DNA of 64,000 nucleotides from Mucidula mucida (taxonomy: Eukaryota; Basidiomycota; Agaricomycetes; Agaricales; Physalacriaceae): positions 62,001 to 126,000 of the forward strand of contig JADNYV010000010.1 in the NCBI GenBank assembly GCA_015501055.1, written 5' to 3'. The notes below the pieces were generated by a model that saw nothing but the letters and a program-made list of their open reading frames with translations, had not been told where the DNA came from and made no database searches. The position numbers and the translations under genes were made by a program. Numbering within the stretch: the stretch's first letter is position 1; every line of letters starts with the position of its first letter. Positions 21,764 to 63,809 of this stretch are shown here, piece by piece.

Positions 21764-24700
21764 TTAAGGCGCAAGTTCCATTCTGCGCCAGAGTCGCTCC
21801 ATGAGGGCTGCAGAGGGTAGCGTGACGTCGAGGGGTTCGGTATCGGGCGGTGGCATGGGTCGGAATAGATGTGATGGAAATTGCGACATGGGGACTTCAA
21901 TGCGAGCAACCGCGGGTGGCTTTGGCTTGTTCGGATATTGTTGGTGGAAATCGCTGATAGCTTCGTCGGCATTTTTGAGATTGCATGCCGGTTCCCATGT
22001 CTGCTCGTGTGTACCGTAACCCTTCCAGTGAACCTTGTATTGGAAACCCCCGCGGTACTTCCGGGAATTCACCACTTTCTCGACCTCCCATTCCGGTTCG
22101 GCTCCTTCCAGCACAGGTGGTGGACACGTGTCTCGGGGTTGCGTCGGAAATTGCGGCTCGTGGTAAGGCGTCAGCAGGGCCTCATTGAACACGGGATGAA
22201 TGCTTTTCCACGTGTGAGGAATCTGGAGCTTGTAAGAGCTCGTCCCGACTTTCTTGATCACTTTGAACGGCCCGAATCGTTTGTCATCGAGCTTCTTCAT
22301 TGGTCGATCCGTGCTGAGATTCGTCCCTTCCAGCCATACTTTGTCGCCTTCCTTGTACTCTACTGCCTCTGTTCGCTTCCTGTCATAAAACCGTTTCATG
22401 TCCTCTTTTGCCATCTTCAATGCTGACCCCACTTCATCCCATGTCTTCCTCATACCGTCGGCAAACTCCTGCGCAGTCTCATTTCTCGATGCCGTTTTTG
22501 GAGCGGTGCCTTTGTAGGGATGTCTGCCCATGTCTGCGAAGAACGGAGTAACTTTGGTTGCCGAGTGAACTCGATCGTTGTAAACGAATTCAGCAGAGGG
22601 TAGCCATTCGTGCCAGTCGTTCTGATGGTAGTTGACAAATAACCGTAAGAAATGTTCTATCTCTTGGTTCAACCGTTCTGTTTGCCCATTTGCCTGTGGA
22701 TGGTACGCCGTCGTGAAGTTCCCTTCAATGCCCAACAGCCGGTATAACTCCTTCATGAAACGCGAGTGGTATTGCGGACCTCGATCGTGTATCATCTGTC
22801 GCGGCAATCCATGTATGGGGAAGATTCGATCGCGGTAAATACGAGCCATGCCTTCTGACGTCAGGGTGGTGTGTGTTGGTATAATGCGTAACCGCTTTGT
22901 GAAATGGTCCACAAACGTGCTGATCGCATTGTATCCTCCCGACTCCGGCAACTCGCCGATCATGTCCGTCCCAACTTTCTCCCATGGTTCGCTTGGTACG
23001 TCTATAGGATGGAGGGGTGCAGCCGGTTTTGTGCGATGTGACTTTGTAACTTGGCATTTTTGACACCCTTCCACGTATTCGCGGACGTCTCGGCTAATTC
23101 CTGGCCACCAATAGGTGCGTGTGATCAACTCGAGAGTCTTGTACCGTCCCGGATGCCCTGCAAGCTGTGCATCATGATGCATTCCAATAACTCTTCCCCG
23201 CAATTCCTTGTCCTTCGGTATGTAAATACGATCCTTCCACATAATAAGTCCATTTTCCTTCTCTTCCCATCCTTTTTCTTTGTTTTCTAATGCTTTTTGT
23301 ACGTATCTGTCTTTGTTTCCTTTTCTTTGTTTGATTTTGTTAAGTAATTTGTCCTCCGGTGTATCTACTGTATGTAAAGAAAATTGAATTTGTGAAATAA
23401 AAAACTCCGGTTTGAGCAAAACAATGTTTTCGTTATCTTTTTCCCCCTTCTCAAGGCCTGTCATCCTTGACAAGGCATCAGCTTTCCCCATCGTCTTGCC
23501 CGGCTTGTGAATCATCTGTATGTCATACTCCGCCAACTCCATGACCCATCGTGCCTGTCTCCGGTTCAACTTCTGCGGCTTCCGGAAGTACTGAAGGTTT
23601 TGATGATCGGTAAAAACCTCCACCGTCTCCGTTGCTCCTAAAAGATACTGTCTCCAGTCATCAATTGAGTCCATGATGGCCATCATTTCTTTGTCGTAGA
23701 TCTCGTAGTTGCGTTCAACTTCATTCAACGCGCGAGATCGGAAAGCCACTGGTCTCTATTTGCCTTCGACGGACTGGGATAGAACAGCCCCGTTGGCATA
23801 GTTCGAAGAATCTGCCTCGACTCGAAACTTGCCGTTGTCGCGTGGTACGATCAGAACGGGTTCTTCCGTCATCCTCCGTTTCAACTCCTCAAACGCCTCA
23901 TGCTGCTCCTCTCTCCAAACCCATTCGCCCTTCCCGGTTAACGATGTCAACGGCTTCGCTACTCCCGCAAATCCCCGAATGAAACGTCGGTAGAAGTTGC
24001 AGAAGCCCAGGAATGACTGCACTTCCTTCTTCTTCGTCGGCTCCTTCCATTCCTTCACTACGGCCACTTTTGCCGGATCCATCTTCACTTCTCCTCCTCC
24101 AACAATAACTCCTAAGTAATCTACAGTCTGTGCCTCAAAACTACATTTCTCGGGTTTTAAATATAGCTTATTTACTCGTAATATCTCCAATACCTTTCGT
24201 ACAATCTGTCTATGCTCCTCGAGAGTGTTTGTAAAGATAAGTATATCATCTAGGTAAACTATAACATGTCCGCCGTCAATCAACTCCTTCAAGATGTGAT
24301 TCATGAACGATTGGAACGTTGCCGGCGAGTTTGTGAGTCCGAAGAACATTACTAATGGCTCGAACAGCCCTCGGTTTGTTCTAAACGCCGCTTTCCACTC
24401 ATCACCGTCTTTGATCCGGATGTTGTTGTAACCCCATCGGACATCCATCTTTGTGAAACACTTCGCTCCCTTCAGCTTGTCGATAAGTTCTTGGATCAAC
24501 GGCAAGGGATATCGGTTTTTGATCGTCATGTCATTCAATTTCCGATAATCCTGCACGGGCCGAAGACTTCCGTCCTTCTTCTTGACAAAGAAGAATGGTG
24601 ACGCCATGGGTGAGATTGATGGCCGTATGCGTCCCGTGCGTATGTTTTCCTCCAAGAACTCGTCTAATGCCTTCTGCTCGGATGGACTAAGGGGATAGAC

Positions 24701-25711
24701 CTTGCAGTCGACCGGTTTGGAACCAGGCGTGAGTTCTATCGCGTGATCCCAGGGTCTTCGCTCCGGTAACTTATCAAAGTCCGCCTTGCTGAATACATCG
24801 GAAAATTCCTCGATGTAAGGTGCAGCAGCAGATGAAGGCTGTTGTGATCTCAGCTTTTCACCGCTTTTGCGATAGTTGTCCCAGTCCATCCAGAATAAGC
24901 GCTCTCCCTCTTCCAACTTCTCTTCTACATCTTCTCCTTCGTCTTCTGGCGAGTCGTACTCGGGTAGATAGCCGCAGCGGTCTGGGCATCGATCAAAAGT
25001 CAATGTGGATTCCGTCCAGTTGATCGTGGGGTTGTGATATCGTAGCCAATCTAGCCCCAGAAAGATACTTGTTTTGCCGAGATTGGTGACGGCCAACTCA
25101 ATCTTTTCGGCGTGATCTCCGATCTTCATCCGGACCTCCACAAAACCTTCGATTGCTCCTCCCTCGTTTAGGGTTCCATCCGCATTGTAGACAGGGAGCT
25201 TGACCGGTAACTCCTTGATCGGGAGTCCGTTCTTCTCGACGAATTCTTTATTGACACAAGAACCCGTTGCTCCACTGTCAAGAAGGGCACTCGTTTCCCA
25301 TTCAGAGCCTGTGTGTACGCTCTCTATGGTTACTCGGAGTTTCATGTCCTGCCCCTTTGTTCCCCGGATGTACTTCCTCGACTTTTTCAACTCCGTCACA
25401 ACTTCCACCGCAGCTTCCTTCGTCAACGCTCTGATCGCCATCACTTTCTCCTCCGTCGCTTCTCTCTCTCTCCGCTCCGGCATCCATGCTCTCAAGATTC
25501 CCACTGCTCTCGACACGTCATCCTCTCTTAGCCGTTGTGCGATCCACTTGGGCGTATTTGGCTCAAATCTTTCTTTCGCAGGTTTTGGTGGTAAAGTTGT
25601 CGATGATATTTTAGGTGTATCAGTATCAGTACTATAAATAGATTCTGCATCTGACAACTTTTCCCTTGATGACTGCTCCGGCAGGACTGCGTCTACTGCG
25701 GGAGCTTCACA
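21764..25711 (-). pseudogene. pol: Chromovirus pol (PR-RT-RNaseH-IN-chromodomain), one premature stop
   Basis: The frame is open from the gag/pol slip site at 25711 to 23759, then TAG at 23756-23758, then open again in the same frame to TAA at 21764. Domains in order: aspartic protease (LLDSGATGSCVNKEF), reverse transcriptase (catalytic YLDD in VIVYLDDILIF), RNase H (VFTDHQNLQYFRKPQ), integrase zinc finger (H-x-H then CQKC) and core with GQTERLNQEIEHFL, and a C-terminal chromodomain (EWEVEKVVNSRK, YKVHWKGYG, QTWEP). The stop sits between RT and RNase H, before RPVAFRSRALNEVERNYEIY, where relatives usually carry Trp, so a single G-to-A change (TGG to TAG) is the simplest cause. The protein has no own ATG near its start, consistent with production by frameshifting from gag. 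Confidence 0.93.
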
Positions 25712-26622
25712 AAACCCAATTCTTCGGCCAGCTTCTTCTTCTCCTCGTCATTCATTTCGGTCCATAAACCCCGAATCGTCTGGGGTCGACCCTTCTTCGG
25801 ACAGAACCTGCTAACGTGGCCGTGTTCGCCACAGCTGAAGCAAAGTCCTCTTCGACGTGCGTTGTCGATGTCCATCGGCCTGCCGGCTCCTCCATAGGTC
25901 ACGCCGGTGGCATCTCGTCGTGTGGTCGGCATTGGGGGTGGGTTCGTAGGATTGGCTCTCGATGTAGCCGCCTGCGGAGCTAGGGGTCGGGCCTGCATGC
26001 CGGACCTCTTGCTCGCCGCCCGCCTTCTCCACAGCTGATCGATCTGAAGGATCTGTGCCTTCCAATCTTTGTACTTCTCTGGCAACCCGTCTCGGCTGCC
26101 ATAGATCTGGTCGATGATCTTCTCGTTGACGTTGGTCTCGAGAAGTCGCACGACGAATGCGTCATCCTTCGAGTATCCTGCCTGAGTGAGCAGGACCTCG
26201 AACTTCTGGAAGAAATCTTGAGCGGTGTCTTGCCCCTGGCGCAACCGCTCGATCTGGTCTTGCGCGTCTCGCGCGAGGTTGGAATCCACAAATTGCTCCT
26301 TCAAGTCTTCTTTGAACTCCGTCCAAGAAACTGTCCATTCCTCTTCTTCCTCGTCGAAGTTCTGGTCCGAGTAGTTCTGGACCCATGCATCTACATGATC
26401 TCCTCGGATATAGGAAAGAACAACATCGATCCTTTCGGAGTCAGATGTGAGGTTGTTCTTCTTGTCACGGATATATGTGAACATCGATCGCCACCAGCTC
26501 TTGTACTTGGACTTGTCCCCGTCATAGTCGTAAGGCTTGTTGACAACGGATCGGCCTTTGATTTCGACATCGGCATGATGAGCGGGTGTGTGAGGAGCGG
26601 TTTCGGGTGCTTCGTTGGACAT
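25693..26622 (-). CDS. gag: Chromovirus Gag (capsid and nucleocapsid)
   Basis: ATG at 26622 (MSNEAPETAPHTPAHHADVE), TAG at 25693-25695, 309 aa. The retrotransposon capsid region is around residues 30-190 (YDYDGDKSKYKSWWRSMFTY; FEVLLTQAGYSKDDAFVVRL), followed by a Pro/Arg-rich linker and one CCHC zinc knuckle (CFSCGEHGHVSRFC, about residue 262), which binds element RNA. The ORF is intact. The last codons overlap pol in the -1 frame, with a GGGTTTT heptamer 15 nt before the stop codon. Confidence 0.93.
   Translation of the reverse strand: MSNEAPETAPHTPAHHADVEIKGRSVVNKPYDYDGDKSKYKSWWRSMFTYIRDKKNNLTSDSERIDVVLSYIRGDHVDAWVQNYSDQNFDEEEEEWTVSWTEFKEDLKEQFVDSNLARDAQDQIERLRQGQDTAQDFFQKFEVLLTQAGYSKDDAFVVRLLETNVNEKIIDQIYGSRDGLPEKYKDWKAQILQIDQLWRRRAASKRSGMQARPLAPQAATSRANPTNPPPMPTTRRDATGVTYGGAGRPMDIDNARRRGLCFSCGEHGHVSRFCPKKGRPQTIRGLWTEMNDEEKKKLAEELGFVKLPQ
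25711..25717 (-). promoter_or_regulatory. Candidate -1 ribosomal frameshift site (GGGTTTT)
   Basis: On the minus strand, a heptamer of the X XXY YYZ type lies in the correct phase of gag (codons GGT TTT). After a one-base backward slip, the next codon begins at 25711, exactly in the pol frame, and there is no stop between there and protease. This would yield a Gag-Pol fusion. A downstream structure was not assessed. Confidence 0.7.
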
Positions 26623-27219
26623 GATGGATCGGGGTGATGGGATCGGAGAGTGAAAGGGTGAAAGTGGGGATATGGGAGATGCGGATTTTGATGAAACGGG
26701 TGAGGGAATAGAGGTTTGGATGAATAGGGAGGGATCGCCTAGATCTGAAATAGAATCCAGGACTTGGTAGGGTGGGGAATGATGATGTGTATCGTAAGGT
26801 AAGTAGAGTAGGTAGGTATCGTAACTGTCTACTCTATTTTACCGGCTACTGACTACGTGTCTACGGAGCCCAAGAGCTCGTCACAAGTTCGCAATTGCCC
26901 AGCCGACGTCCCTCTGGTGTGAGGTAAGCCGAAGTTTTCCTGGGAACGGGGGTTGACCCGTAAACAGCGCCCACTGAAGTGCAACTGCCAAAAGTTCGTT
27001 CTCGTGAGAGCGGCTACTTCCAGCACCCGAGGCAGTTATCTCTAACTGTTAGCCGGCGCTACTGGGACCAATACACACGTATGCGGACGTGCGCTGGAAT
27101 TAGGATTCCGTCGATCTGTAAACAGGAAAGGGGATGGGGAATGTGCGATGATCAAACAGCGAAGTGCTGATCGACGATCAGGGATGTGTGGTAGGTGGTA
27201 GAAAGTAGTTCTGATCTTC

Positions 27220-44180: not shown

Positions 44181-45289
44181 TTAACTGTTAAACACCTTGT
44201 GCATGAACGAGTACATATTTTCCATCTTGACATCGGGGTTCTTGTCAAAGAGATGGTCGACTCCTTCCAGCTCGTCGTATTGGACCTCTGGTGCAGCGGC
44301 TACGACATCCCTCGACTGTCTCGCTGGGACTTTATCGTCAATGTCACCGTGGACGATATACGTCGGCGGCAGCGTATACTTGCCCGACTTGAGCGCCAGC
44401 GCCACACTATACGTCTCCGGCGGGATCCCCGTGCCGCCCAACAACAACTCTGTCTCGATACCTCTACACCACAACGTATCAGCTTTTGTTCCCTTCAAAA
44501 ACAAACGAGACTCACTCCTGCAACATATAATGATAAAACAACGCCCTCGGACTGTCCAGAGCGGAAAACGCCACCTTGTCCGCCGCGGGATCCAGATAGG
44601 GCTCCAATTCCTTCTTATCGATGACCCGCGGGAAATAGGACAGGGCCTTTGCGGCGTCGTCCAGAACGCGTCAAGGAGGTCAGTGATCGGGTACAACGCC
44701 GCGATGCCCGCGACTGGCGGTGTCCCGATCGCGATACCAGCCCCACAGAGGAGCGCGAGCCACCCGCCCGCGGAGCTCCCGCTCAGCACGACCCGGCCCG
44801 CGTCGGCGCGGTGCCCCGTCGCAGTGGCGAACGCTGGGGAAGAGAGGAATGTGAGGGCGTCGGTGCAGTCTGTGAGGATGTCCGGGAGCCGGGTTTGCGG
44901 CGCGAGGCGGTAGTCGGCGGAGATGAAGCAGATGTGATGGGTTGAGGGGGAGAGGAGGTGGTGTGGGGAGGTTCCTACATACAACGTTAACTTAACTTTC
45001 AAGAGGGATGCGAACGAGGGGTAGAGATACCTTTTCGTGTGCCCTATACATAGTAATCGAGGAAGGTCAATATTGAAGTAAGATGTCCATGCATACCTGC
45101 AGCAGACCGCCACCTAGTACATGGTGTTAGAATCGAGGCGATAACGATAAACGTGAACGAACCATGCCACCACAAGACGATCGGCGCAGGACTCTCAGCA
45201 GTCACCGACTCCGGGATGTACACATCCATACCGATATCCAGCCCATCTACATGCTTGAACACCAGTTCCAACGGTGTCGGGGAAGCCAT
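44181..45289 (-). CDS. Alpha/beta hydrolase fold-3 esterase/lipase
   Basis: ATG at 45289 (MASPTPLELVFKHVDGLDIG). The oxyanion motif HGGG is formed across an intron (VLWWHG joined to GGLLQ). ISADYRLAPQTRLPDILTDC follows, then the nucleophile elbow GSSAGG, the acid region YIVHGDIDDKVPARQS, and the histidine in GVDHLFD near the C terminus (MHKVFNS, TAA at 44181-44183). The Ser-Asp-His triad and HGGG place it in the hormone-sensitive-lipase-like group. No signal peptide, so it is intracellular. Substrates are unknown; such enzymes act on short esters or acetylated xenobiotics. Several short introns, including one around 44470-44520. Confidence 0.85.
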
Positions 45290-48754: not shown

Positions 48755-50407
48755 ATGGCGCCTATTCGCGAACGCGAAGGCTCCGACGCTTCCTCCACTC
48801 TATACTCCCCGTTCCCCTTCTCACGAGCTAGCACTGCCCGACAAACACGAAAGGGCTATAGCCTAGACGGTACTCCCTTCGGCTCACCAGTCCCAGAGAT
48901 CACTATTCCCGTCTATCACAACATTGACCTACTTGGACCACTGTCACCCTTGACTGATAGTGACGTTGACGCGGAAGGAGAAACAGACGTGGAAGAGGAA
49001 GAAGATTTGACTCGGCGTCAACTCCAAGAATCACTCGCTGAGCTTGAACCCGACGATGAGGAAACACCAGGCTCGTCCGGATCCATTCCCTTCATGTCGG
49101 CTGTGACAGCGCCCTTGCACGACCCGATAACCGTCAGAGGACAGACGCTCAGACCAAACATAGTCTACAACGTCTTCTTATGGCTCTCCGCGGAACGGCT
49201 CGGCATCACGAAGAGACGATGGTTGGGATTTCCCTCGCCGTAAGTGACCTGTTCGTACGCGTGATTAGTTATGAACTCACGTTGTAGATGGACAATCAAC
49301 AAGCTCCTCCAAAGAGAATTCTTTTGCAACACATTCCGCATCCTCGATCGAACAGCTCAATACCTCATCACTGAGGTTATCGAGAAAGGCTCGCAGGAAC
49401 CGAGAGAGTTGCTTTTCCGCACCCTTCTTTTCACCACGTTCAACAAGATCGCGACTTGGGAGTTGTTGGCTGAGAAGATTCCGTCGTTGACCTGGGCTAC
49501 CTATAAGCGGAAGCGATATGAAAAGGTGCTTGACACTGCGAAGAAAAGTGGTACGAGCTTGTTCTCGGCCGCGTACCAAAAGCAGAACGGGTTCTCTCAG
49601 CAGAAACGCAATGGCAGCACTGTCGACATGTGGCGGCATCACCTCGATATCGTCGAGGAAATGATGGGTGGAGATGTGCTTTTGAACAAGCTCCGGGCGC
49701 CGAATGTCTATCTCGACGATATCTTCGATTTCTGCAAAGACACCTTTTGGGGATTCGGCGACTTCAACACGTACCAACTCATCTTAAATCTCGGCTACAC
49801 CAATCTCTCAACACATTCGTCTTGGGACTTTGTAGTTCTCGGTCCAGGAGCGCGTTCTTGCCTTTACAAGATGTTCGGAGACCGCATCCTCGACGCGGAG
49901 AAGAAAGAGGCGGATATTTTCCAGGCTGCGCTTCGCAAGATCACGAGGTACCTCCCCGAGGATTTGGCGCGTCTTGGGTTCCAGTTCGAGGGCATCGATG
50001 CAGAGCACCGCGCGATGGAGCTCGCCGATGTGGAACACATGTTATGTGAAACGGACAAGTACGCGAGAGTGGTGTTTCCATGGATGAAAGGCCTCGACAA
50101 GGCGCACACTCTGCGGCTTCGAGAGCGGTTTGGGAGAAGGAGTCCGCCAGGATGTGTCTTTCCGAAGGCTTGGGATGTGCGGAGGAGCCTGAAGGATGTG
50201 AGAATTCGGAGGTGGGATCCGTTGGGTGATTATGTTGTGGACTGTATAAGGGACCATCGACAGGCAGCGGATGGGTCGTATGAGTTTCTGGTTGCGTGGG
50301 AGGACTATCCTGCGGAGATGGATACGTGGGAGCCGGCGGGGAACTTGAAGAAGTTGAGTATCTTGGAGTATCTTGAGGACCGCCGTGTTGTCCTTCCTGG
50401 ATTTTGA
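48755..50407 (+). CDS. DNA base hypermodification-like (5-hmdU kinase helical) domain fused to chromodomain, copy 1
   Basis: Two exons. Exon 1 starts MAPIREREGSDASSTLYSPF; a disordered acidic region (about residues 70-110) precedes LHDPITVRGQTLRPNIVYNV. The intron lies after FPSP and exon 2 opens WTINKLLQREFFCNTFRILD. The middle (residues about 170-460) matches what I recall of the family named 5-hmdU DNA kinase helical domain or putative DNA base hypermodification protein: REFFCNTFRILDRTAQYLI, RELLFRTLLFTTFNKIATWE, GFGDFNTYQLILNLGYT (helix-hairpin-helix-like), DFVVLGPGARSCLYKMFG and ELADVEHMLCETDKYARVVF. The C terminus (about residues 480-535) is a chromodomain with aromatic cage positions: DYVVDCIRD, YEFLVAWEDYP, DTWEPAGNLKK. 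There is no P-loop kinase motif. Family members act in, or are predicted for, phage thymine hypermodification; here a nuclear, chromatin-bound DNA modification or repair role is inferred. Complete and uninterrupted. Confidence 0.72.
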
Positions 50408-51507
50408 ACTGTAGCATATTCGAGTATATTTGTATATCTTTGGTACACGGTAAATAGTCGTTATGTAGTGTATTTTAGCTTTCTTGTCAATGCGCTGATA
50501 GATTTAATTGCTCTAGATTCAGTGGCGGCGCGTACTATTTTGAGGCAGCTCGTGCAGTGATACCGGTGGTTTACAAGGGGGTTTGCTTAGGGGGCTGGAA
50601 GGTGTGCAGAAAAGAGTTTTACCACTGCGTTTTCTGTTTGAATTCAAGCAGCAGTCTCGGTATACTTGGAAAGAGATCGTCGTTTGGGGAAAAGTCTATC
50701 AGTGCGCCACAAATCACATGTATGTTGTACTTTCTTCTTGCCACCATGTACTACTTTGTCTACAAAGGTGGCAAGCAGAGGGGTTATGCATCTCTTCCAG
50801 CTGCTTTGTCGGTTAATGTGGCTCGGGTTCTTACTGCGTGTTGATCAAACGACCATGACGACTCACGCGGCACCGTTTGGTGCATTTTAGTATTCCGGAG
50901 ACTGGGAGATATGCTAACTTGGCTGTGCATGACTCCTTCTGTAATATGTTGTGTTCCTCAGAAGCCCACTCTCTCGGCGCTATAGCTATCTCTAGATCAT
51001 ACATCTCCCAGTACCGGGGTCCTTTGACCAGTGGACAATTGAACTTAAGTGACTCAGATCTAGTATCTGGATAAATTCTGGGTCACCCAAGCTTGCGCAC
51101 TGCTACTGAGCTATCAACGAACCGAGGACTTGCACCCCTTGGTCTGAGCTATGTCGTCTAGTAAGTAGTAAATCGTTCTAGAAGTGCTGCGCTCATCAAT
51201 GTATGTATCACTCATCACTAGAAGTGTGGACAAATATAGAATAGCACATGTACGCCATACCGCGTCGTTGGACGCGAAGGAGAAAAAGCCGACATTTCGC
51301 GTTTAAGTGTGAGCGTCGCACTCATGGTGACACTCTTCAGTGGCCTTGCGGCGTGAGAACTTGATCAGGACTGATTTTCATCCCTTGTTCTTCGACGCGT
51401 CGTTTTTTGAACTTTCTGGCGGTCTTTCAGGTTCTCTTCTCTGCTTTCCGTGACGTCTCTGTAGACTAACAAGCCTTGTTCCAGAACGACTAGCGTGAAA
51501 TTGGCAT
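50408..51507. other. Spacer between the two chromodomain genes
   Basis: About 1.1 kb. The open frames at 50557-50890 show no domain and overlap in different registers. No repeat shared with the flanking genes was seen. The right part should carry the promoter of copy 2. Confidence 0.4.
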
Positions 51508-53045
51508 ATGCCCCCCTATCGCTCGGCGGTTGCGCCTCTGTTCGCGCTACTTCTGGACGTTCTGCGCGTTCCATCAACGCTAAAGAACTCGCACGTCAGC
51601 AGCAAGTCGCAGACCCCTTCCAGCTCATTCTGCACGCGTTGCGCCTCCCAATCCTCCTCCTCTCTTGATGCCGACGCCGATTTTGATTCAGACTTTGCAG
51701 AGCCTGCGCGTAAGCAAGGTGTCCCCGGATCCCTTCCTTTCACCGTAGCCACCGAAGCACCCCTACGCGAGTCCATCATCATTCAAGGGCAGGTCCTCAA
51801 TCCGACAATAGGGCTAAACGTCCTATGGTGGATGCTTGCAGAAAGAGTTAACGTGTTTCTATACCGCCAATCTGGCGCGCCCGGTCCGTGAGTGTTACTA
51901 TTATATGGACATCAGATGTGATTGACGGATCCTGTCTTTAGTTGGACCGACAACGTGCACTTGCGACAAATGTACACCTGTAATTCTTTCCGCGTCCTCG
52001 ACAAGGCCTGTCAGTTTCTTATCAAGGAGGTCATCCAGAAAGGCTCTCAGAAACCCAGGGAAATCCTCTTTCGTATCTTGCTCTACAACACGTTCACGCT
52101 CCCAGAGACGTGGATCCTGCTTGAAAAGGCTCTTGGTCCTCTCACTTGGGCAGCGTACGACCCAGCCGCCTATCGCACCGTCCTCGATGAAGCCAGAGCA
52201 AACGGCGTCACGCTTTTCACCGCCGCCTTCCAGAAACAGCCAGGAGGCAGAGGCACAATCATGCATCATCATCAACTGTCCATCCTCGAGAGAATGATGG
52301 CCAACGACAATCTGCTACAGCGTCTTCAAGCTCCTGGTGTGTATGCCAGAGATATCTTTGACTATTTGAAGACGTATCCCAGTGTTGGCGACTTCAACGC
52401 GTACCAACTCGTCCTCAATCTTGGCTATTCGAAGCTTCTCATCTTCAACGGCGATGATTTCGTTATTGCTGGCTGCGGAGCGTCCTCTGGGTGTCTCAAG
52501 TGTTCGGCAAGTCGATGGCCAAAGCCAAGACCGTGGAGGGAGTCAAGGACACCATTGAAGAGGATATTATGCGGTGGATGTGCGACAACCAGGAAGCCGA
52601 GTTTGCTCGCTTGGGGATTACATTCACCGGGGTGAACAAGCAGCTTCGTCGTCTGGAGCTTGCTGACTTTGAGCACGCGGTTTGTGAGGTCGACAAGTTC
52701 CTTAGGCTCACGCATCCTCACCTCAAGGGGTCGGACGACCGTACGAAAAGCAAACGGTCATTTCATGGCAAGGCGCGACCCATGCCGCCCGTTGTTCTGC
52801 CCAAAGTGTGGGCGCGCCGGCGCAAGATGGCGGTGAGGATTAGGCCTGTGCGGGAGGAGGACGAGCCGGTGTGGGTGATTGAGAAAATCGTTGAGCGCCA
52901 GATGGTTGATGGCATAATGATGTATCATGTCTTTTGGAAGGGGTGGGAAGAGAAGGACATGACCTGGGAGCCGGAATACAAGTTGGTGGAGGATATTCCG
53001 GACATGATGAAGCGGTGGCTCAAGGAGCACGGACATAGTCAATAG
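51508..53045 (+). pseudogene. DNA base hypermodification-like domain fused to chromodomain, copy 2, apparent frameshift
   Basis: Same architecture as copy 1. Exon 1 starts MPPYRSAVAPLFALLLDVLR, has an acidic stretch and then PLRESIIIQGQVLNPTIGLN. The intron (about 51890-51941) lies after GAPGP and exon 2 opens WTDNVHLRQMYTCNSFRVLD: same site and phase as copy 1. Motifs: REILFRILLYNTFTLPETWI, PSVGDFNAYQLVLNLGYS, GDDFVIAGCGASSG. At a GGG run (52489-52491) the frame is lost; coding continues one register over with VSQVFGKSMAKAKTVEGV, RRLELADFEHAVCEVDKFLR and the chromodomain (VWVIEKIVERQ, YHVFWKGWEEKDMTWEPEYK), stop TAG at 53043-53045. One missing G explains it, by real mutation or base-calling error; no intron fits. 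If real, the product would lose part of the domain and the chromodomain. Conserved reading frame on both sides argues for recent loss or an error. Confidence 0.68.
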
Positions 53046-53201: not shown

Positions 53202-54138
53202 ATGCCCGCACCGTCCAACGAATCAAATTTCCGTTCGAATCTCTCACAGTTCCGATGGGCTAGAGGGCAGACCGACGACTCGCAGCAGCAGCAGCCCCCG
53301 CAGCAACAGGCGTCCGCCAACCCATTCTCCCGCTTCTACAACGCCGTCGCCGGAGATTATGTCCCATTGCGCTCCAACGAGCGGACAAACGAGGAGGAGG
53401 CGTGGTTCGCGCTGTCGAGCTGGGAACGGTGCGCTTTCTGGCTATTCAGAGAGAGAGAGATGCTGAATTATGATGGTGTGTAGACTGCTGGGATTCGGCG
53501 CTTGTCTTGTCGGTGCGGCGGTGTGTTTCTTTATCGCGTTCTTGACGCTTATGAGGTGTGCAATCCACACCATTTTATATGAGGCTTTGTTTTGATGGGG
53601 TTTAGACCGTCCAAGTTTGCGCTAGCATTCAGGTGTGTCTTCGCGTCCCCCCCGCATACGCAAAATAGCTTATACTAGTCTTCAGCCTAGGCAGTCTTCT
53701 CGTGATGTTTGGGTGCGCAATCAATCATCTTCGTTTTGCCTGGCTCAATTTCTTGGACCAGGTTCTCCGTATTAATAGGGCCCATAAATCACCTCAAACA
53801 TCTCGTCTCAAAGGAGCGACTACCGTTCACAGCAGTCTACTTTGCAAGTCTCGGTCTGACACTATATTTCTCTCTCGGGGTGCGCGCGTTTGTTTCATTG
53901 AATCTGCCCGCAACCTCACCTATTGCTCCAGCTTCATTCGTTTCTTGGTTCACTAATAAGTGGCGTCGTTCAAGTAGGCTCTTCCTCCGTAACCCCCCCC
54001 CATCAGTTGACCTCACACTGCCTCCAGGTCGTCGCGCTTATTGCATACGTTCTTGCATACTTCCCTGGTGGCACTTCCACACTACTACTTGGCGGACAGA
54101 TGGCAATGCGGGGCGCAAGCAGCCTTCTACCACGTTAA
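53202..54138 (+). CDS. SFT2: Vesicle transport protein SFT2 (GOT1/SFT2 family)
   Basis: ATG at 53202 in a good context (accaccATG). The cytoplasmic N terminus is Gln/Pro rich (SQQQQPPQQQASANPFSRF). Four membrane helices follow, split by short introns: LGFGACLVGAAVCFFIAFLT, PSKFALAFSLGSLLVMFG, FSVLIGPINHLKHLVSKERL with FTAVYFASLGLTLYFSLG, and VVALIAYVLAYFPGGTSTLL. The family hallmark YFPGG-x-x-x-L then GGQMAMRGASSLLP ends the protein, TAA at 54136-54138. It acts in fusion of endosome-derived vesicles with the Golgi. The exon junctions (near 53430, 53556, 53631, 53714, 53881) are GT..AG. The gene converges with NUP192, with about 100 bp between stops. Confidence 0.9.
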
Positions 54139-54236
54139 CAGTCCTCACACTTTCTCCTGTGTATTTGTGGATTAATACAGATTTCGGATGCAAAAATACA
54201 GTGTACATATGCTAACACGCCATATTTTCAAAACAA

Positions 54237-57200
54237 TCATGAAATCATCGACATATCGTCGCCCTCATCATTTTGGTGCAGGCCGACAGTGTCCCGTAAC
54301 CGTCGGTCCATAATTTCCATGTAGGCCTGGTTATCGCGCCAGTCCTCGCCAAGTCTCTGTGAATGGATCAATTCAGATCCAATGGATGTGGTGAAGCAAC
54401 AACGCACAACAGTTCTCAACCTTTGCAACACGGGCTGAAGGCTCCTTCCGAGTTCTTGCCGGAACGAGTCTGGCTCGGGCATCGATAACAATCGTATCGC
54501 ATAGCTTTTGCCTTCCGCAGGCTTGACATGATGTCCATCGCAATAGTACATTGCATGCCTCCACAGCAGCAAGAGCACCATCTCAGCCGTATGGATAACG
54601 ATCTTCACGTCCTTTTTGAGACCCTCCTCCAGTCGCTCGTATTCCTGGCAGACGAGGGTCCGCTTTTGATTGATATTAAGCTCCTGCAAAACTGCCGGCT
54701 CCAAATGAACGACCTGAACACGCAATGGTCAGCACCCGCGCGCGCGATATGAAAGAAATGCCTGCCCAACCTCTTGGATATTTTCGACAGTGACGTGCTC
54801 CCGTGCAGATAGCTCCGAAGCGATGAAGGCCATCTGGTTCAGCATTGCCTCAAGATCGCCCAGAACGTCATTCAGAGCTTGGATCGCATCGCCCAGGGTG
54901 GGCAGTGTCGCTATAGGCAGAGTTTTCAATACGGGGATGTCATCAAATGCCCTGGAAATAACGCACCAATGAAATGCGAGCTGCGCTCATCCAACCTAGG
55001 TACTGCCGTTGAAGGCGCCAACATCACGTTAATTTCTGGTTCTGCCGGCAAACATAAGGGATGAGTCTAAATGCACAAGGGTTAGCAAAATGACGAACTA
55101 ACCCGTAAAGTCATTAGCAGCGCCCAAGTATGCAACGACGGCTTTTCGAACAAGGCGCTCTTTTTGGCGAACAGCCGCTTGAAACTTGGACTCTGATCCG
55201 AAACCTACCAGTGATTGCATTTTAGTTTTATTACGCGGGAACAATTCAAAAATACCTGACGAAAGTGCATTCGAGCTGGCAATCTCCGCGTCTGTTATCG
55301 GTCGCACGTTTTCAACCCAGTGCCCTGCCCTAAGGTATTGCGTAGAAAGAGCCAAAATGGCAGCATGGATGGCGCCAAACCCAGAACCTGTAGATGCCTA
55401 ACTCGAACAGTCAGGACGTTCAGCTCGTATCGGCCGAAATTGAAAAGGGCAAACCAGATCCGTCTTTGGCACTACGTGCAGAACGTTGGTCGACAGGGAG
55501 ATCAGCAGGTGAATCTCCTCCAAAAGTGAAAGCGACAAGTCTTCAGTTTCATTTTTCAATAAAATGACGATAGTAGGGCTGTGCTTGGACAGGAAGTCTA
55601 ATGCCTACGCCAAAGGTTAGTTAGCACTGTTCCCATCGATAGTACAGAATCAGGTACCTGGTTCGTGGCAGACGCATGCTTTGAACCAAGGGTGGCAACA
55701 ATAGCATTCACAAGTTCGACAGCGGGCATAAAGAGCTGATGATACCGCTGAACCGCAGACGGCAAAAAAGTGTCTTGGTCTAACGAAAAGGAGGAAATGT
55801 CAGGACACACGCGCAGAGTATCCGTAAAGTAGTTACACATACCCATAAAGTCCTGATCTCCTTCAGGTCTAGCGTCGAGATAGTCGCATCTGCCCAACAC
55901 TGAAATAATGTTGGCATCCAATAATCGCTCGGCGCCAGCCCTTGAATGTGCTATCCGAATGAAGAGTGACATTTTCGACTCATAAACGTAAAGCGCGTTG
56001 AGATCATCTATTGAATCAATGCCGTTAAGTAAAAACTGTGCATTAACAAACACACATCTAGAGGCTTACCAGGATCAGGTTTGAGGATAGCCTGCAGATT
56101 CAGATCCGACTCCCCAACACCGTGGATAAAGTTGGTCAGGATGCCATGTCGTACGAGATAGGTCAAAACAAGGTATTGCTTCTCGGCCACTGATAACTGG
56201 CACAAAGAAGTCAACAAGTTGAATGCCACTGTCTTCCATACTTCCGACCCATCAATGGCGTCTCGAGCAATGGTTGTAACGAGTCGCTCAAGACCGCCCT
56301 TCATCAAAGCCAAACTGTTGGCCTGGATCGGCGAAGACGAGGACTGCCGGCCTTGAGGGATGAGAGCCTGATTGTCGTCGAAGAAGGTTTCACGGGCAGT
56401 GGCAGCCAGGGACATTGACATGGACAGACCATTCGGCAGAGAGGAGGCGGTAGAGGAGGAAGGAGAGATGAGGTGGATGTATTCGCAATCGACGCGTAAA
56501 GATTACCTCGAACGAGCTCTAAACGGCTGTTATCGATGATACATTCCAAAATGTTCTTCAAAATAGTGTACAGCCGCTCAGCGGGGAGAACGTTGCTCTC
56601 TGCATCTCCGGAAAGCGAGGAAAGGACGATTTGCTGCTGTCGGTCTTCGCGAAGTTTAGTAATCGCAGATAGCGTCATTTCCGCCAAGACCACCGCCGTA
56701 GAGTCTTCCACTTCAGAGGAGTGGAGGATGGTCGGTAATATTTGGAGAAGGTCGAACAGCGTGTTCTCCCGTAGATCGTGCGGTAGACGATGGAAACAGC
56801 GGAGAAGCGCCATGTCCAACATCTTTCGCCAGGATTCGAAGCCTGTCGCCGCAGCGTACACAACCTCCCGTCGGTGGTTTTCCACAGCACAGCTCTCCAG
56901 TATATACTGAGATTCAAGCGCGACCTGCTCCATATTTGCCGGAGTTGCGACTTTGCTCTGCGCCACTAATGAACGACGAGCAAAAGTCAACAACGAAAGC
57001 AGAGCCCCCCTATCGATGACTTCGCATCCCGAACTGTCTTTCCGTGTACATGAATGCAGAGGGAGTTGCGCGAGGTATTTGACATCTACAGGCTTGACAG
57101 TCAGATGGTCGGACCAGTCGAAAGCCAATGAATGCAGGTATTCAATGATCCGCATATTCGATTGCCCAACTTCTCGGAAGGTGTCGAAGATCGCGTCTTG

Positions 57201-60200
57201 CCACTCGGGATCTGCGTCATAGATGGGCTGAGTACTGAATAGAATGGCGAGCAGATCATCGACACCCTTGTGCTGATTCCGGTTCATGAGAACTTGCAGC
57301 TCTAACGCCACGAGATTGAAGATCCACGAGCGGGACCTCAGGAAAGCACTGAAAGTCGCCACTGTGGTTGGAAGACGCGTTCCATCGGCATACACAATCT
57401 CGATGAAGGGTTCAACTTCAGCACGAGGTCCCTGCGTTGGAATCGCAGCAAGATGGCGGGCAAAGAAGTCTTCCCGCGTCCGGAGATATCGCATAGTGAG
57501 TTCCGACGTCGACGAGTCGAGGCAAAGAGTGTGCAGGATATGATAACACCGCTCAGCAAGGGCGGGAATGGCCATAAACATCGGCGTGCCACGAACTTCT
57601 TGCTCCTTGCCCTTCCCTTTCAGCCTCGGTACGCCGATATTGAGCAACTCAATAACGAGATGAACGCAAGTTTGCTGAGAGCCCAAAGCATGTGGATCTT
57701 CGATCTGTTGGCTTCGCTTGGTGCTGCCGAAGAGTAACCAGCGAGCAAAGCTCTGGTAGGAACTGTTGGTCTCGGTGCTTTGAATCAATAAGTCAAGGAC
57801 TGCTAGCCTTGTCGCCTGGCTCAGGTCAATACTTAGATCAACATCAGGCGCACCAGCCCCGGTGCTCTGTTCTGCAACGGTCTCCGCACTCAAGACATCC
57901 TCCACCGATTCGGATTGTAGTATATGGATATATCCGGCCATGATGCGCTTCGAGTTCTCGCTTCGCTGAATTAGAACAGCCATACTCGACAATGCGACAG
58001 ACATTGAGAGGGCGGACATGATCTTTACAGAAAGCAAAACGAGTTCCGGATGAGCAGGATATGCGACATAAGACGCGATAGCGGGAACATAATGAGGACC
58101 AAAGGAAAGAGACTGGTCGAATCTGGTGAAGTACGAACGAGGATGAACCACACCAACGGATGAAGCGCCTTCAAAGTCAAAGAGTACAGGAATCAGAACA
58201 TCCAGGAAGAGGTCCTGAATCTCTAGCGCGCGCTGGACGATGCGCAAAGCCCGAACAATGGTGCTTGCAAAGAAGGGTTCTTCGTCCGCGAAACCTCTTT
58301 CGAAAGCATCAACACCCTCAACAATATAAGAGGTGATGCTCTGATGGAGAGGAGTGGCTGCCAGCAACATCTTCATGATGTCGTAACCGGGGTGTGCCAA
58401 CAAGGAAACGAGGCTCTCGGCTTTCAGCGGCCCCGCCTCTGCAGAGGCCAAGATCGACTCGACATCGAAACTTGCCAGTGACCGCTCAATGAAGCACAAA
58501 CAGAGATCGTTCATCTGCCACCGGTCCGAAGGACGCGCGTACTCTCGGGCGGGGATTTTGGCAAAAACATTGTCAACGACAAACGCGACGAATGGTCCAA
58601 TTCCAGGAAGTCGATAGGGTTGTCCCAAATTCTCTGGTATGGTGCTCAGTGTGCCGGGATCGGTTATACGTTCACGGAGAGAGACACGTTTCACAGTATG
58701 AATGAGTGTACACAGCAACTGGAGGAAAGGGATTGTGGCGGGATATACACCATGGGTAGATTCAATCTCCAGCTCAACTTCCAAGCCCTTGACGTTCATG
58801 AGGTTTCCACCGAAACCCGATTGCGAGGGCGGCCTGACGTTGATCACTTCATAGCGCTCCATTAGCGTCCACACCGCCTTGCAGATCTCGACTCCGACGC
58901 TCCCACCACCCGGCTGACAAAATGCAGAGAGTGTCTCAAATAGAGTGCCTTTGAGCTCGAGAGGAATACCGAGGGGAATGAGAGACACCATAGTGGGAAT
59001 CGCGCGGAATTGATGGTGAGACGTGATGGCGGCACGAACGGAGATGGAATGGGTAACCACGACTGCGAGTAAATGGAGGAAAGCCTGCGCCATGATGACA
59101 TCCTTGGGGTTGAGAACAGGATGCTGAACGGTTTGTTGTGGGGAATGAACGAAGCCGCGACCAAGAGATTGGGTAGGAGGAGCACGGGTAGAGGCACTAC
59201 TTGACGCCCATGTATCTAGCCGATTGAAAATGATCTCCCATGATAGAATTCCTCCGCTTGACGATGCGGGTGGCATGGTGCTATCTGGGACGACTTCAAT
59301 GCCGCCGCGCGCCATGAAATTATATGTCAACTCGCTACATTGCTGTCCCGTTGCCAAACCTGTCAGCATATCGTATAGCGCCGTTATCATTGTGGTGTCC
59401 TGCGGCGCGACCGACCAGACAGCCCACTGAAGGAATGCGGGAAGTTTAGCCGCCATGACTTCTGCTGCCTCCATGTGGGATAAGGTATGTCGTGGACTAG
59501 AACCCCAGAAAGGAAGGGCCGAATCATTGGGTAGACTGGAGTACAGGATGCCGAGGAGGGAATAGAGCATCGCAACGTCATTGCGGGGAGGTGACGATGG
59601 TGTGGGTGCTGCGAGAGGCGTCGCATAACGGGCAGGGCCACCACGAGTACTGCCGCGGGCACTTGCGAGGACAAGATCCTCTTGCCGCTGCTTGATCTTG
59701 CGTAATTCGGATGGCGCGAGAATCAAACACGCCTGCACCAAGGTTGCAAATGATTGGAGAACAATAGACTTGAAGTCTTCCTGAGGGATATCCCGCTTGT
59801 CGAGTTTCTCGATAGTCAGAGATTGAAGCAAGGCAGGAAGCTTGGACTTCCTTGCTTCCGCTGAAGATGAATTACGGCAGTTGACATAAACGCGAAAGCG
59901 TCACCCTGGACAGCCCCCCATATCTGAGCTTCCAACTGATTGGACATGAAACCATCCACACTCTCCAAACTCGCATTGCGACGTCGAATGTCCGTCGACA
60001 ACAGCGTCCACTTCATCAAAAGAGTGGCCTGCAACCCTGGCTCACTCCATTCCGACGAAATCAGCTTTGTCTTCATGAATGCTACGGTGGGCGGGTGTTT
60101 CGCAATTGCGTCGCGTCGTACGCCGGACGGAGAAGCGGGATCGACGATATCCAGCATGGCCATGATGGTGGTGAGCATATAATAAGTCATTGCGTGATTG

Positions 60201-61194: not shown

Positions 61195-63809
61195 ATGGGT
61201 AAAGCTTCCAAGGCTACGAAAAAGTTCGCTTCAAGTGGTCAGCTCAAGAAAACTATTGAGGCGCGTCGAAAGCACCAGCAAGTGCGGAAACGAATACAAA
61301 ACAAGAAAACGGGCAAGGGCAAGCAAAAGGCAGTCGAAGTACCCGAAGATGAGGACGTAGAAGACGACGAGGAGGAGAAAATATCCACCTCAAAAAAGAG
61401 GTGTGTTTAGTACTCTCATCCAAGAGGTCAGCTAAATCTTTGCAGGAAAATGACAGTGGATGACTTTCTTGGTGCCGGCTTCATGGACGGCAGCGACGAC
61501 GACGACGGCCAAGTAGAAGCCGACGAAGCCGACAGTGACAATGTTAGCTACTATCACAATCTTGTTACTTGGATTAATATTCTCACGTTAGGACATGGAC
61601 GAGGATGAAGATGACATAGACGATGCTGCATCATTTGCCGATGTAGATGACCTGGACGACGGTTCGTGATTTCCATTTTCCGCGTCCTATCTAAAGTCCT
61701 TCACAGACGAAGGCCAAAATCATCTTCTGGAATTGTCAAAACTCGCAGAAACCGATCCCGAATTCTACAAATACCTCCAAGAAAATGACAAGGAATTATT
61801 AGATTTTGATGCCTCAAAAATGGCCGGTCCCGAAGACGAAGATATGGAAGACGCTGCCGACATAGCCGATACACAGAGGCGACCTCCCTTGACCAACGAC
61901 ATAATACGAAAGTGGCAGAAAGGTCTACTAGAACATCGGTCTCTACGTGCTTTACGAAAACTGCTCATTGCTTTCCGCGCTGCTGTGCACATGAACGACG
62001 AAGACCAGGTTCTTGCTTGGAGTATAGATAGCTCGTCAGGTTAGTTTATACACCTATTCATACGCCTGTCTATTTTCTGACATCCAGTCAGTCTATAATA
62101 AACTCGTTTCCACATCACTCATGTACACGCCCATCGTTTTGGAGCATCATGTTCCGTTCAAAAAGCTTCCCAACGGCAAATTGTGAGTTGGCGCACGTTC
62201 ACAGGTTTTCGTTTCCTTAACAGTTCTTAGTAAACCACCCACGCAGACGAAAAAGTTAAAGGCCCTTCAGAAGCTTATCCTATCGTATTTCCACAACACG
62301 ATACAGCTTCTATCGCAGGCCACGGACTCTGAAATGATGCAATTAGCGATCACAGAGAGCGCGAAAATCATCCCGTATGTGGTTAGCAGCAGGAAGACCG
62401 TAAAGGTCTACCTTAAGGTACCCTGATTTTGTCACCGGGAAGCTTCAAACCTAACGTGTCGACTTAGAAATGTCTTGAGCTCTGGTCTGCAGATGCAGAT
62501 GACAGCACACGAATCGCCGCCTTCTTAGCGGTCCGAAAGCTAGCTTCGGCGACTGATGTCTCAATCATGGACAACGTACTCAAGGTAACAAATTCCCTAC
62601 ATCCCATGCGTTCTAACTTATACCCCTTCCAGGGAACATATCTGACACTCGTTCGGTCCTCCAAATCCACGAGTGCTTACACCTTGCCTGCCATCAATTT
62701 GATGAAGAATTCTGCCTCTGAAATATTCAGCCTGGATCACACGGCTTCGTATCAACTCGCCTTTGGCTACATCCGACAATTGGCTATTCATCTACGCAAC
62801 AGCATGAAGATCAAGACCAAGGTCGGTCTTAACATTATTGCCAGAGGTACACGTTCTCAACACAAGTACCCTTCTATAGGAAGCCTACAAACAGGTTTAC
62901 AATTGGCAGTATGTGCATTCAATCGATTTTTGGTGCCTCGTGCTTGCGCGAGCCTGTGACGCTGAGACTGAGAAGCAAAACGGTGGCCAGGCTAGCGAAT
63001 TGAAGCCACTCATTTACCCCGTGGTCCAGATTAGTCTAGGCGCCATAAAGTGGGTGTTCCCATCAATTCTTGACTGACGTTCATTGTTGAACTCACACCA
63101 AATCTATTTTAGACTCATCTCGAGCAGTCGCTCGTACCCTTTCCATCTGCACATCATTCGTTCTCTGCTTCACTTGATCCGCCACACTCACACCTACATC
63201 CCTATATCCCCATATATCCTTCCCATTCTCACTACCACCCTCTCGGCTCCCTCTCTCAAGTCGAGCACCCTGCGACCGTTGGACTTTGAGGTCCAAATCC
63301 GAGCGCCGCAACAGTATCTCAAAACCCGCGTCTACGCCGAAGGTCTGATAGACGAGGCGTCCTTCCTCCTTGCGGAGTGGCTGGCCAGTACGGCGGTCCA
63401 AGGGCAGATCGCCTTTCCCGAGGTCGTTATACCAATAGTTGTCACCTTGAGGAGAAGTCTCAAGAGCGCCCGGACAGGGTCGACAGCTGGAAAGGACCTT
63501 GCCCTGCTGAAGACGTTGATTGAACGCGTGGAGGAGAGCTCCAAATGGGTTGAATCACGTCGGAAGAATCTCCGGATAGCACCAGCCCAACAGGACAATG
63601 TTGCAATGTGGCAGAAAGAAATGCAGAGCAAGGTGGATGAATCCCCATTAGCGAGGTATGTGAAAGTACAGCGCAAGGCTCGAGAGAAGCGGCAGAAGCT
63701 GGTGGAAAAGGTAAGAATTTACCTTCAACGTGGGATTGCACAAGTACTCATCCGTTCACTCGCGTCCCAGGCTCGAAAAGGTGAAGATGAAATTCTCGAT
63801 CGGGAGTGA
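61195..63809 (+). CDS. NOC2: Nucleolar complex protein 2 (60S ribosome biogenesis)
   Basis: ATG at 61195: MGKASKATKKFASSGQLKKT, then a Lys/Arg-rich and an acidic region (DVEDDEEEKI; DMDEDEDDIDDAASF). Conserved NOC2 landmarks: HLLELSKLAETDPEFYKYLQ, ENDKELLDFD, SLMYTPIVLEHHVPFKKLPN, KKCLELWSADADDSTRIAAF, KGTYLTLVRSSKSTSAYTLP, YVHSIDFWCLVLARACDAET, RPLDFEVQIRAPQQYLKTRV and RTYAEGLIDEA-like helices. The C terminus KGEDEILDRE closes with TGA at 63807-63809 after a short intron. It pairs with NOC1 and NOC3 in nucleolar export of pre-60S particles. About ten introns; no break seen. Confidence 0.92.

What the first reader, a model, noticed from the sequence alone, without database searches (positions are those of the whole stretch)
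48755..53045. Tandem fungal genes joining a phage-type DNA base hypermodification domain to a chromodomain
Seen: both genes carry the same order of parts: an acidic N terminus, a helical domain with D-F-N-x-Y-Q-L-x-L-N-L-G-Y, D-F-V-[VI]-x-G-x-G-A and E-L-A-D-[VF]-E-H-x-x-C-E-x-D-K motifs, and a C-terminal chromodomain with the W-x-x-[YW]-x-x-x-x-x-T-W-E-P pattern. Known: the helical family (5-hmdU DNA kinase helical domain / putative DNA base hypermodification protein) is linked by comparative genomics to modified thymines in phages and bacteria. Inference: a eukaryotic host has recruited it to chromatin through a methyl-histone reader, giving a targeted DNA modification, demodification or repair activity. 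No P-loop kinase motif is present, so it would need a partner (for example a TET/JBP-type oxygenase and a kinase) or have a different chemistry.
Basis: partly seen in the sequence, partly recalled or inferred. Interest (0 to 1): 0.88.

Follow-up and report, generated by a model that had tools for sequence, protein, structure and literature searches.

The report
Phage-type domain fused to mushroom chromodomain
A protein domain that phages and bacteria keep beside enzymes that decorate DNA bases has been joined, in mushroom-forming fungi, to a module that reads marks on chromatin, and the fungal versions found lack two residues that the other relatives almost never change, so the domain probably no longer does its old job.

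Summary
The observation largely holds. Copy 1 (48755-50407, one intron, 534 aa) carries PF18723 "5-hmdU DNA kinase, helical domain" (E = 4.5e-80) and a chromodomain (2e-10). Copy 2 has the same order of parts, but this assembly has a reading-frame break inside the helical domain; an intact orthologue exists in Hymenopellis radicata. The fusion is not unique: searches found 24 fungal-type protein clusters (17 named, 16 species), which form one clade; their chromodomain cage positions are aromatic in 24 of 24. In phage M6, which has hypermodified thymidine, the domain is encoded next to the P-loop 5-hmdU kinase; in four bacterial or viral ORFs scanned it is fused to a thymidylate-kinase domain. 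New here: the predicted fold resembles HhH DNA glycosylases and Qng1; and of 22 positions nearly invariant in 180 prokaryotic/viral members, exactly two, K277 and D330, are absent from all 24 fungal proteins, while K260 is present in all 24 and none of the 180. Best reading: a phage-derived base-handling domain re-tooled as a chromatin-bound DNA or base-recognition factor, no longer doing the phage reaction. A changed enzyme is not excluded. No partner enzyme was shown or excluded.

The parts
48755..49239 (+). Copy 1, exon 1 (start codon at 48755; acidic N terminus and start of the helical domain)
   Evidence: GT-AG model open over 534 codons; 86.5% identical to H. radicata P0001 over 535 columns
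49240..49287 (+). Copy 1 intron
   Evidence: GTAAGT...TAG; the one GT-AG pair found in the range tried; the spliced protein aligns end to end with P0001
49288..50407 (+). Copy 1, exon 2, to the stop codon
49163..50089 (+). Copy 1 PF18723 HMUDK_hel (residues 137-429, interrupted by the intron)
   Evidence: E = 4.5e-80; coordinates checked; model of orthologue P0001 mostly confident here
49787..49789 (+). Copy 1 codon AAT, Asn329 (= P0001 position 330), where 180 of 180 prokaryotic/viral relatives have Asp
50231..50356 (+). Copy 1 chromodomain (residues 477-518)
   Evidence: PF00385 E = 2e-10
51508..51887 (+). Copy 2, exon 1 (start codon provisional)
   Evidence: GT-AG model; the H. radicata relative does not support this N terminus
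51888..51941 (+). Copy 2 intron, at the position equivalent to that of copy 1
51942..53045 (+). Copy 2, exon 2, with a reading-frame break near 52500
   Evidence: an intact orthologue exists in H. radicata (P0042)
51940..52506 (+). Copy 2 PF18723, first part
   Evidence: E = 5.9e-58
52503..52730 (+). Copy 2 PF18723, second part, in another frame
   Evidence: E = 6.9e-16
52872..53024 (+). Copy 2 chromodomain
   Evidence: PF00385 E = 1.2e-08

Best explanation
What it is (shown): a gene family of mushroom-forming fungi joining an HMUDK_hel (PF18723, also called aGPT-Pplase1) domain to a chromodomain, here as a tandem pair whose second member is frame-broken in this assembly. How it works (inferred): the chromodomain docks the protein on methylated histone tails; the HMUDK_hel domain, predicted to have an HhH DNA-glycosylase-like fold, binds DNA and probably an extrahelical base. 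The fungal lineage lost the Lys and Asp that are nearly invariant in the prokaryotic and viral family while keeping 12 other near-invariant positions in all 24 members. The ancestral step in making hypermodified thymine is therefore probably gone, and the domain now acts as a chromatin-tethered DNA or base-recognition factor, perhaps in silencing mobile DNA, or as an enzyme with a changed active site.
Confidence: 0.5

Rival explanations
1. Active hypermodification: the fungal protein still takes part, with a kinase and an oxygenase encoded elsewhere, in making a modified base at methyl-histone chromatin.
For: Same family as M6 gp055, next to the kinase in a phage with chemically known hypermodified thymidine; 12 of 22 near-invariant positions intact in 24 of 24 fungal sequences. 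TET/JBP dioxygenases carried by DNA transposons are reported in Agaricomycotina, Agaricus bisporus included (passages of PMC12730594), and A. bisporus has a fusion protein (P0033).
Against: D330 and K277 absent from 24 of 24 fungal proteins; no P-loop in 24 of 24; no PF18748, Tet_JBP or 2OG-FeII_Oxy_6 exon found in this assembly, though controls were silent.
Confidence: 0.15
2. Re-tooled enzyme: an HhH-fold DNA glycosylase or other base-processing enzyme directed to heterochromatin, acting in repair or in mutating or silencing repeats.
For: Fold similarity to Ogg, AlkA and Mag1; polar residues constant in the fungi but not in the relatives: K260, K195, E412, H413.
Against: In the register suggested by hhalign, the place of the HhH-GPD catalytic Asp (about 347-350) holds 1 acidic residue in 720 prokaryotic/viral cells and 0 in 96 fungal cells; that register is weak.
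Confidence: 0.2
3. Structural chromatin protein: the helical domain is only a scaffold or protein-protein interface and has nothing to do with DNA bases.
For: Loss of two of the most conserved charged residues; no partner found.
Against: R179, D182, D410, C416, E417, K420 and R423 unchanged in 24 of 24 fungal sequences (174-183 and 416-423 overlap the patterns that fetched the prokaryotic and viral loci, but not the fungal proteins), which a pure scaffold would not obviously need.
Confidence: 0.15

Closest known systems
PF18723 HMUDK_hel / aGPT-Pplase1 (for example Pseudomonas phage M6 gp055, Sphaerotilus phage SN1_020)
   Same: Whole domain aligns; shared R179, D182, F322, G350, G354, C416, E417, K420. 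Fungi also share F-C-N-x-F-R-x-L-D and D-I-E-H with M6 gp055.
   Different: Fungal members lack K277 and D330, have no P-loop and carry a chromodomain.
Bacterial thymidylate-kinase-HMUDK_hel fusion operons (XRE regulator, M78 peptidase, thymidylate-synthase-like; MazG in others)
   Same: The same helical domain in a multi-domain protein.
   Different: The bacterial partner is an enzyme; the fungal partner is a histone reader. A defence function of this exact operon was not tested here.
HhH-GPD DNA glycosylases and Qng1 (DUF2419)
   Same: Best structural matches of the helical domain.
   Different: No Pfam HhH-GPD or Q_salvage match; the usual catalytic Lys and Asp are not seen in the suggested register.
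Chromodomain readers CDYL, CDY, CBX/HP1
   Same: Fold and aromatic cage.
   Different: Pairing of these with HMUDK_hel was not seen in any call here.

Membership tests
PF18723 HMUDK_hel domain family | Profile score over the curated cut-off along the whole domain | tested here: met
   269.5 bits against a cut-off of 25, profile positions 3-280 of 281
PF18723 HMUDK_hel domain family | Fold like predicted phage members | tested here: met
   Eight Foldseek hits at E <= 0.001 in the viral library, 2.3e-10 to 3.5e-7; six are named HMUDK or aGPT-Pplase1, two have no name (model of P0001)
Working 5-hmdU DNA hypermodification component (functional class) | Asp at 330 and Lys at 277, near-invariant in 180 prokaryotic/viral members (a criterion derived here) | tested here: not met
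   0 of 24 fungal proteins have either
Working 5-hmdU DNA hypermodification component (functional class) | P-loop kinase in the same protein or encoded close by | tested here: not met
   No P-loop in copy 1 or 24 of 24 fungal-type proteins; no kinase family among Pfam hits at 1e-5 of 38 of the 45 window ORFs of 140 aa or more (a kinase split by introns could be missed)
Working 5-hmdU DNA hypermodification component (functional class) | 5hmU source (TET/JBP or hydroxymethylase) and 5-hmdU kinase in the genome | tested here: inconclusive
   No exon hits for PF12851, PF20515 or PF18748, but all 14 controls were silent
HhH-GPD DNA glycosylase superfamily | Overall fold | tested here: inconclusive
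HhH-GPD DNA glycosylase superfamily | Catalytic Asp (and Lys in lyases) | tested here: inconclusive
   Not seen at the equivalent place in the hhalign register, but the register rests on a weak match
Methyl-lysine-reading chromodomain | Profile match and three aromatic cage residues | tested here: met
   PF00385 over cut-off in both copies; cage positions aromatic in 24 of 24 fungal-type proteins; which positions form the cage is from my own knowledge
Methyl-lysine-reading chromodomain | Binding of methylated H3 | not testable with these tools
   needs a binding assay

The most novel reading that the evidence does not exclude
Mushroom-forming fungi took a base-hypermodification domain of the phage M6 type and turned it into an epigenetic factor that couples a methyl-histone mark to recognition or processing of an unusual DNA base, implying a thymine-derived or other non-canonical base, or a base-flipping silencing step, not yet known in fungi.
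Probability: 0.25. Interest if true: 0.87.

Novelty: new variant of a known kind. Interest (0 to 1): 0.62.

Why it matters
If right, it is a clear case of phage DNA-modification machinery domesticated into eukaryotic chromatin, present in at least 16 named mushroom-forming species, with a residue-level prediction (K277/D330 gone, K260 gained) that one purification and a few DNA substrates can test. It would also help explain a phage domain whose own role beside the kinase is not resolved in the passages I could read, by pointing to a DNA-glycosylase-like, base-presenting fold.

Tried and rejected
1) A second AlphaFold job (P0017, given without an alignment) failed (mean pLDDT 33.6) and was not used; it should have been given an alignment. 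2) My first guess put the HhH hairpin at F-V-x-x-G-P-G-A and the catalytic Asp at D410. The hhalign runs moved the hairpin to y-P-s-i-G-d-F, so I dropped it. 3) hhalign against HhH-GPD groups: probability 1 to 28%, P 6e-4 at best; against ADDT P 8e-3; ADDT against HhH-GPD P 0.02. This suggests a register; it does not prove descent. ADDT proteins also have an Asp in this helix, one residue earlier (12 of 13, some near-identical; one lacks the motif), so I do not call it the same residue. 4) A crude regular expression for position 330 hit other places in some sequences (158 of 180 prokaryotic/viral D; 0 of 24 fungal D) and was dropped in favour of the alignment. 5) Sequence search of solved structures with the family alignment: one match, E 0.5. 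The 50 PDB rows that Foldseek listed were all chromodomains. 6) PF10343 (Qng1): no match in 8 bacterial genomes, controls silent; found in the fungal one. 7) TET/JBP and kinase searches were silent with silent controls, so no absence is claimed. 8) No dN/dS was attempted: no orthologue DNA was held. Identity of copy 1 to P0001 by region does not separate domains from disordered parts (N terminus 103/119, helical 271/316, chromodomain 42/46), so it gives no evidence of selection by itself. 9) Literature: the nine searches listed no paper on this fungal fusion; two computational papers that I recall as the likeliest places (Iyer et al. 2013 and 2014) are not held, so prior mention is possible. 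10) PADLOC: of four proteins, only the kinase half of one bacterial fusion matched.
Full report
WHAT IS THERE. The window lies on contig C2 of a 59.9 Mb, 1047-contig assembly, fungal by its nearest relatives. Copy 1 runs 48755-50407 with one intron (49240-49287) and encodes 534 aa. Pfam finds PF18723, "5-hmdU DNA kinase, helical domain", at residues 137-429 (E = 4.5e-80) and a chromodomain at 477-518 (E = 2e-10). The closest relative is Hymenopellis radicata P0001 (87% identity over 100% of the query; 86.5% over 535 columns). Copy 2 (51508-53045) has an intron in the equivalent place and the same order of parts, but its frame breaks near 52500 within PF18723. Its two halves are 165 of 185 and 156 of 178 identical to H. 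radicata P0042, so both paralogues are older than the split from that species. An intact orthologue exists there; whether the break here is real or an assembly error cannot be told. The assembly has PF18723 only at this tandem (three exon matches), and the locus is single-copy by DNA search.

HOW COMMON IS IT. Three searches of the large protein set (each scored only the roughly 8,000 candidates sharing most words, so counts are lower bounds) gave 24 fungal-type clusters besides the window's own. 17 are named, from 16 species of Hymenopellis, Desarmillaria, Armillaria, Amanita, Suillus, Dendrothele, Asterophora, Imleria, Lyophyllum, Agaricus, Chiua, Hohenbuehelia, Moniliophthora and Mycena; 7 are unnamed and classed by me as fungal from their architecture. 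Three looked up are Agaricomycetes, in Agaricales and Boletales; the placing of the rest there is recalled. Pfam calls a chromodomain in 22 of 24; the two Mycena exceptions (P0039, P0041) still align with the cage residues. The three cage positions are aromatic in 24 of 24: 478 Y17/W4/F3, 500 W24, 503 Y23/W1. By sequence, the nearest solved chains to the copy 1 chromodomain are CDYL, CDY1 and CBX1. The other 33 relatives have no chromodomain in the Pfam column. In a quick tree of 109 of 206 possible rows, the 26 fungal rows (24 plus the two window copies) are one clade (SH-aLRT 88, below the program's star; it also warns of long branches). Copy 1 with P0001 and copy 2 with P0042 have 100 each, and these four together 97. 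This fits one acquisition and one fusion, with a duplication in the Hymenopellis line.

WHAT THE DOMAIN DOES ELSEWHERE. Of 75 bacterial loci, 47 have a thymidylate-synthase-like neighbour within six genes, 50 an M78 peptidase or XRE regulator, 50 a MazG-type cluster, and 17 a P-loop either in the same ORF (8) or within three genes (9). Of 73 viral loci, 40 have thymidylate synthase, 25 a P-loop and 13 an ADDT neighbour within eight genes (cluster names come from one or two Pfam-scanned representatives each, so they are approximate). Pfam finds Thymidylate_kin fused to HMUDK_hel in 4 of 4 fused ORFs scanned (10 of 148 ORFs have the P-loop motif) and a glycosyltransferase fused to it in one viral ORF. 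In Pseudomonas phage M6, gp055 is HMUDK_hel, gp054 matches the 5-hmdU kinase PF18748 and gp051 matches ADDT. SN1, a near relative, annotates the same cassette as aGPT-Pplase2, PLP enzyme, radical SAM, P-loop kinase, aGPT-Pplase1, Nmad5 and thymidylate synthase/hydroxymethylase (passages of PMC9476957). M6 DNA carries 5-(2-aminoethyl)deoxyuridine, thought to be made from 5hmdU through a phosphorylated intermediate (search listing and passages of PMC6449724). A 2026 study reports a 5-hydroxymethyluracil kinase domain and a thymidylate synthase domain among newly validated anti-phage systems (PMC13092281: abstract, sections 5 and 7 and passages). I could not see whether that domain is PF18723 or PF18748.

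THE KEY DIFFERENCE. In an alignment of 180 prokaryotic/viral and 24 fungal domains, 22 columns (of those filled in at least 150 and 15 rows) are at least 97% one residue in the former. Twelve are unchanged in 24 of 24 fungal sequences, among them R179, D182, F322, G350, C416, E417, K420 and R423. Ten are not; eight of those are partly kept (from 4 of 24 at N214 to 23 of 24), and two are gone entirely: K277 (176 of 180; the exceptions are 3 R and 1 D) and D330 (180 of 180; in fungi N18, S5, G1). Both window copies have Asn at 330. D330 and K277 are also present in M6 gp055 and SBSphiC. Motif columns near 174-183 and 416-423 were used to fetch the viral and bacterial loci, so their invariance is partly forced; 277 and 330 were not. 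K260 is in 0 of 180 and 24 of 24. Fungi share E412 (21 of 180), H413 (21 of 180; both together in 17), all of these viral contigs, and C175 (40 of 180, 39 of them viral contigs) with phage-type members, and M6 gp055 shows F-C-N-I-F-R-E-L-D and D-I-E-H. This hints at descent from the phage M6 side of the family, though overall identity is higher to bacterial-type members in the searches made and the tree does not settle the root.

READING. Joint loss of two charged near-invariant residues, with strict keeping of twelve others, fits a domain that still binds its DNA target but has lost or changed the ancestral reaction. With a working-looking methyl-lysine reader attached, the simplest account is a chromatin-tethered DNA or base-recognition factor. 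Steps shown: domain identity, fusion, spread, residue losses, cage. Steps inferred: DNA or base binding, loss of catalysis, histone docking, role in silencing. I give the mechanism 0.5. A changed enzyme is the main rival.

SURROUNDINGS. Nearby ORFs match Got1/Sft2 (53706-54212), Nup192 (56307-59900, minus), Noc2 (63078-63806) and an alpha/beta hydrolase (44184-45113, minus), so the tandem sits among ordinary genes. A Ty3-type retroelement with its own chromodomain lies at about 21.8-26.8 kb.

Noticed in passing
window 21767-26838, minus strand: Ty3-type retroelement ORFs (reverse transcriptase, integrase, chromodomain). In the genome 150 chromodomain matches were scored (of 656 candidates), most with near-identical scores, which suggests a large chromovirus family.
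   Followed up: no
G000 C872:8428-9532 and C727:122775-123882 (L197, L199): Two very similar copies of a Qng1-like (PF10343) gene on two contigs, perhaps two haplotypes or a duplication, whereas the HMUDK locus is single.
   Followed up: partly
L028 4459-6972 (viral contig): A viral ORF of 837 aa fusing a glycosyltransferase (PF00534) to HMUDK_hel; may mark a different thymine hypermodification.
   Followed up: no
bacterial loci such as L126, L133, L137, L163: Recurrent neighbourhood of XRE regulator and/or M78 peptidase, divergent thymidylate-synthase-like protein, P-loop kinase with HMUDK_hel, and thymidylate synthase (MazG in other loci); looks like a candidate defence or base-modification island.
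   Followed up: partly
L137 6422-7267: A divergent thymidylate-synthase-like neighbour with no Pfam match at E 0.05; its cluster mate L106 matches PF00303 only at 0.0018, below the cut-off.
   Followed up: no
P0029 and P0038: Dendrothele and Moniliophthora members appear to carry a second chromodomain-like stretch, after and before the first respectively (alignment).
   Followed up: no
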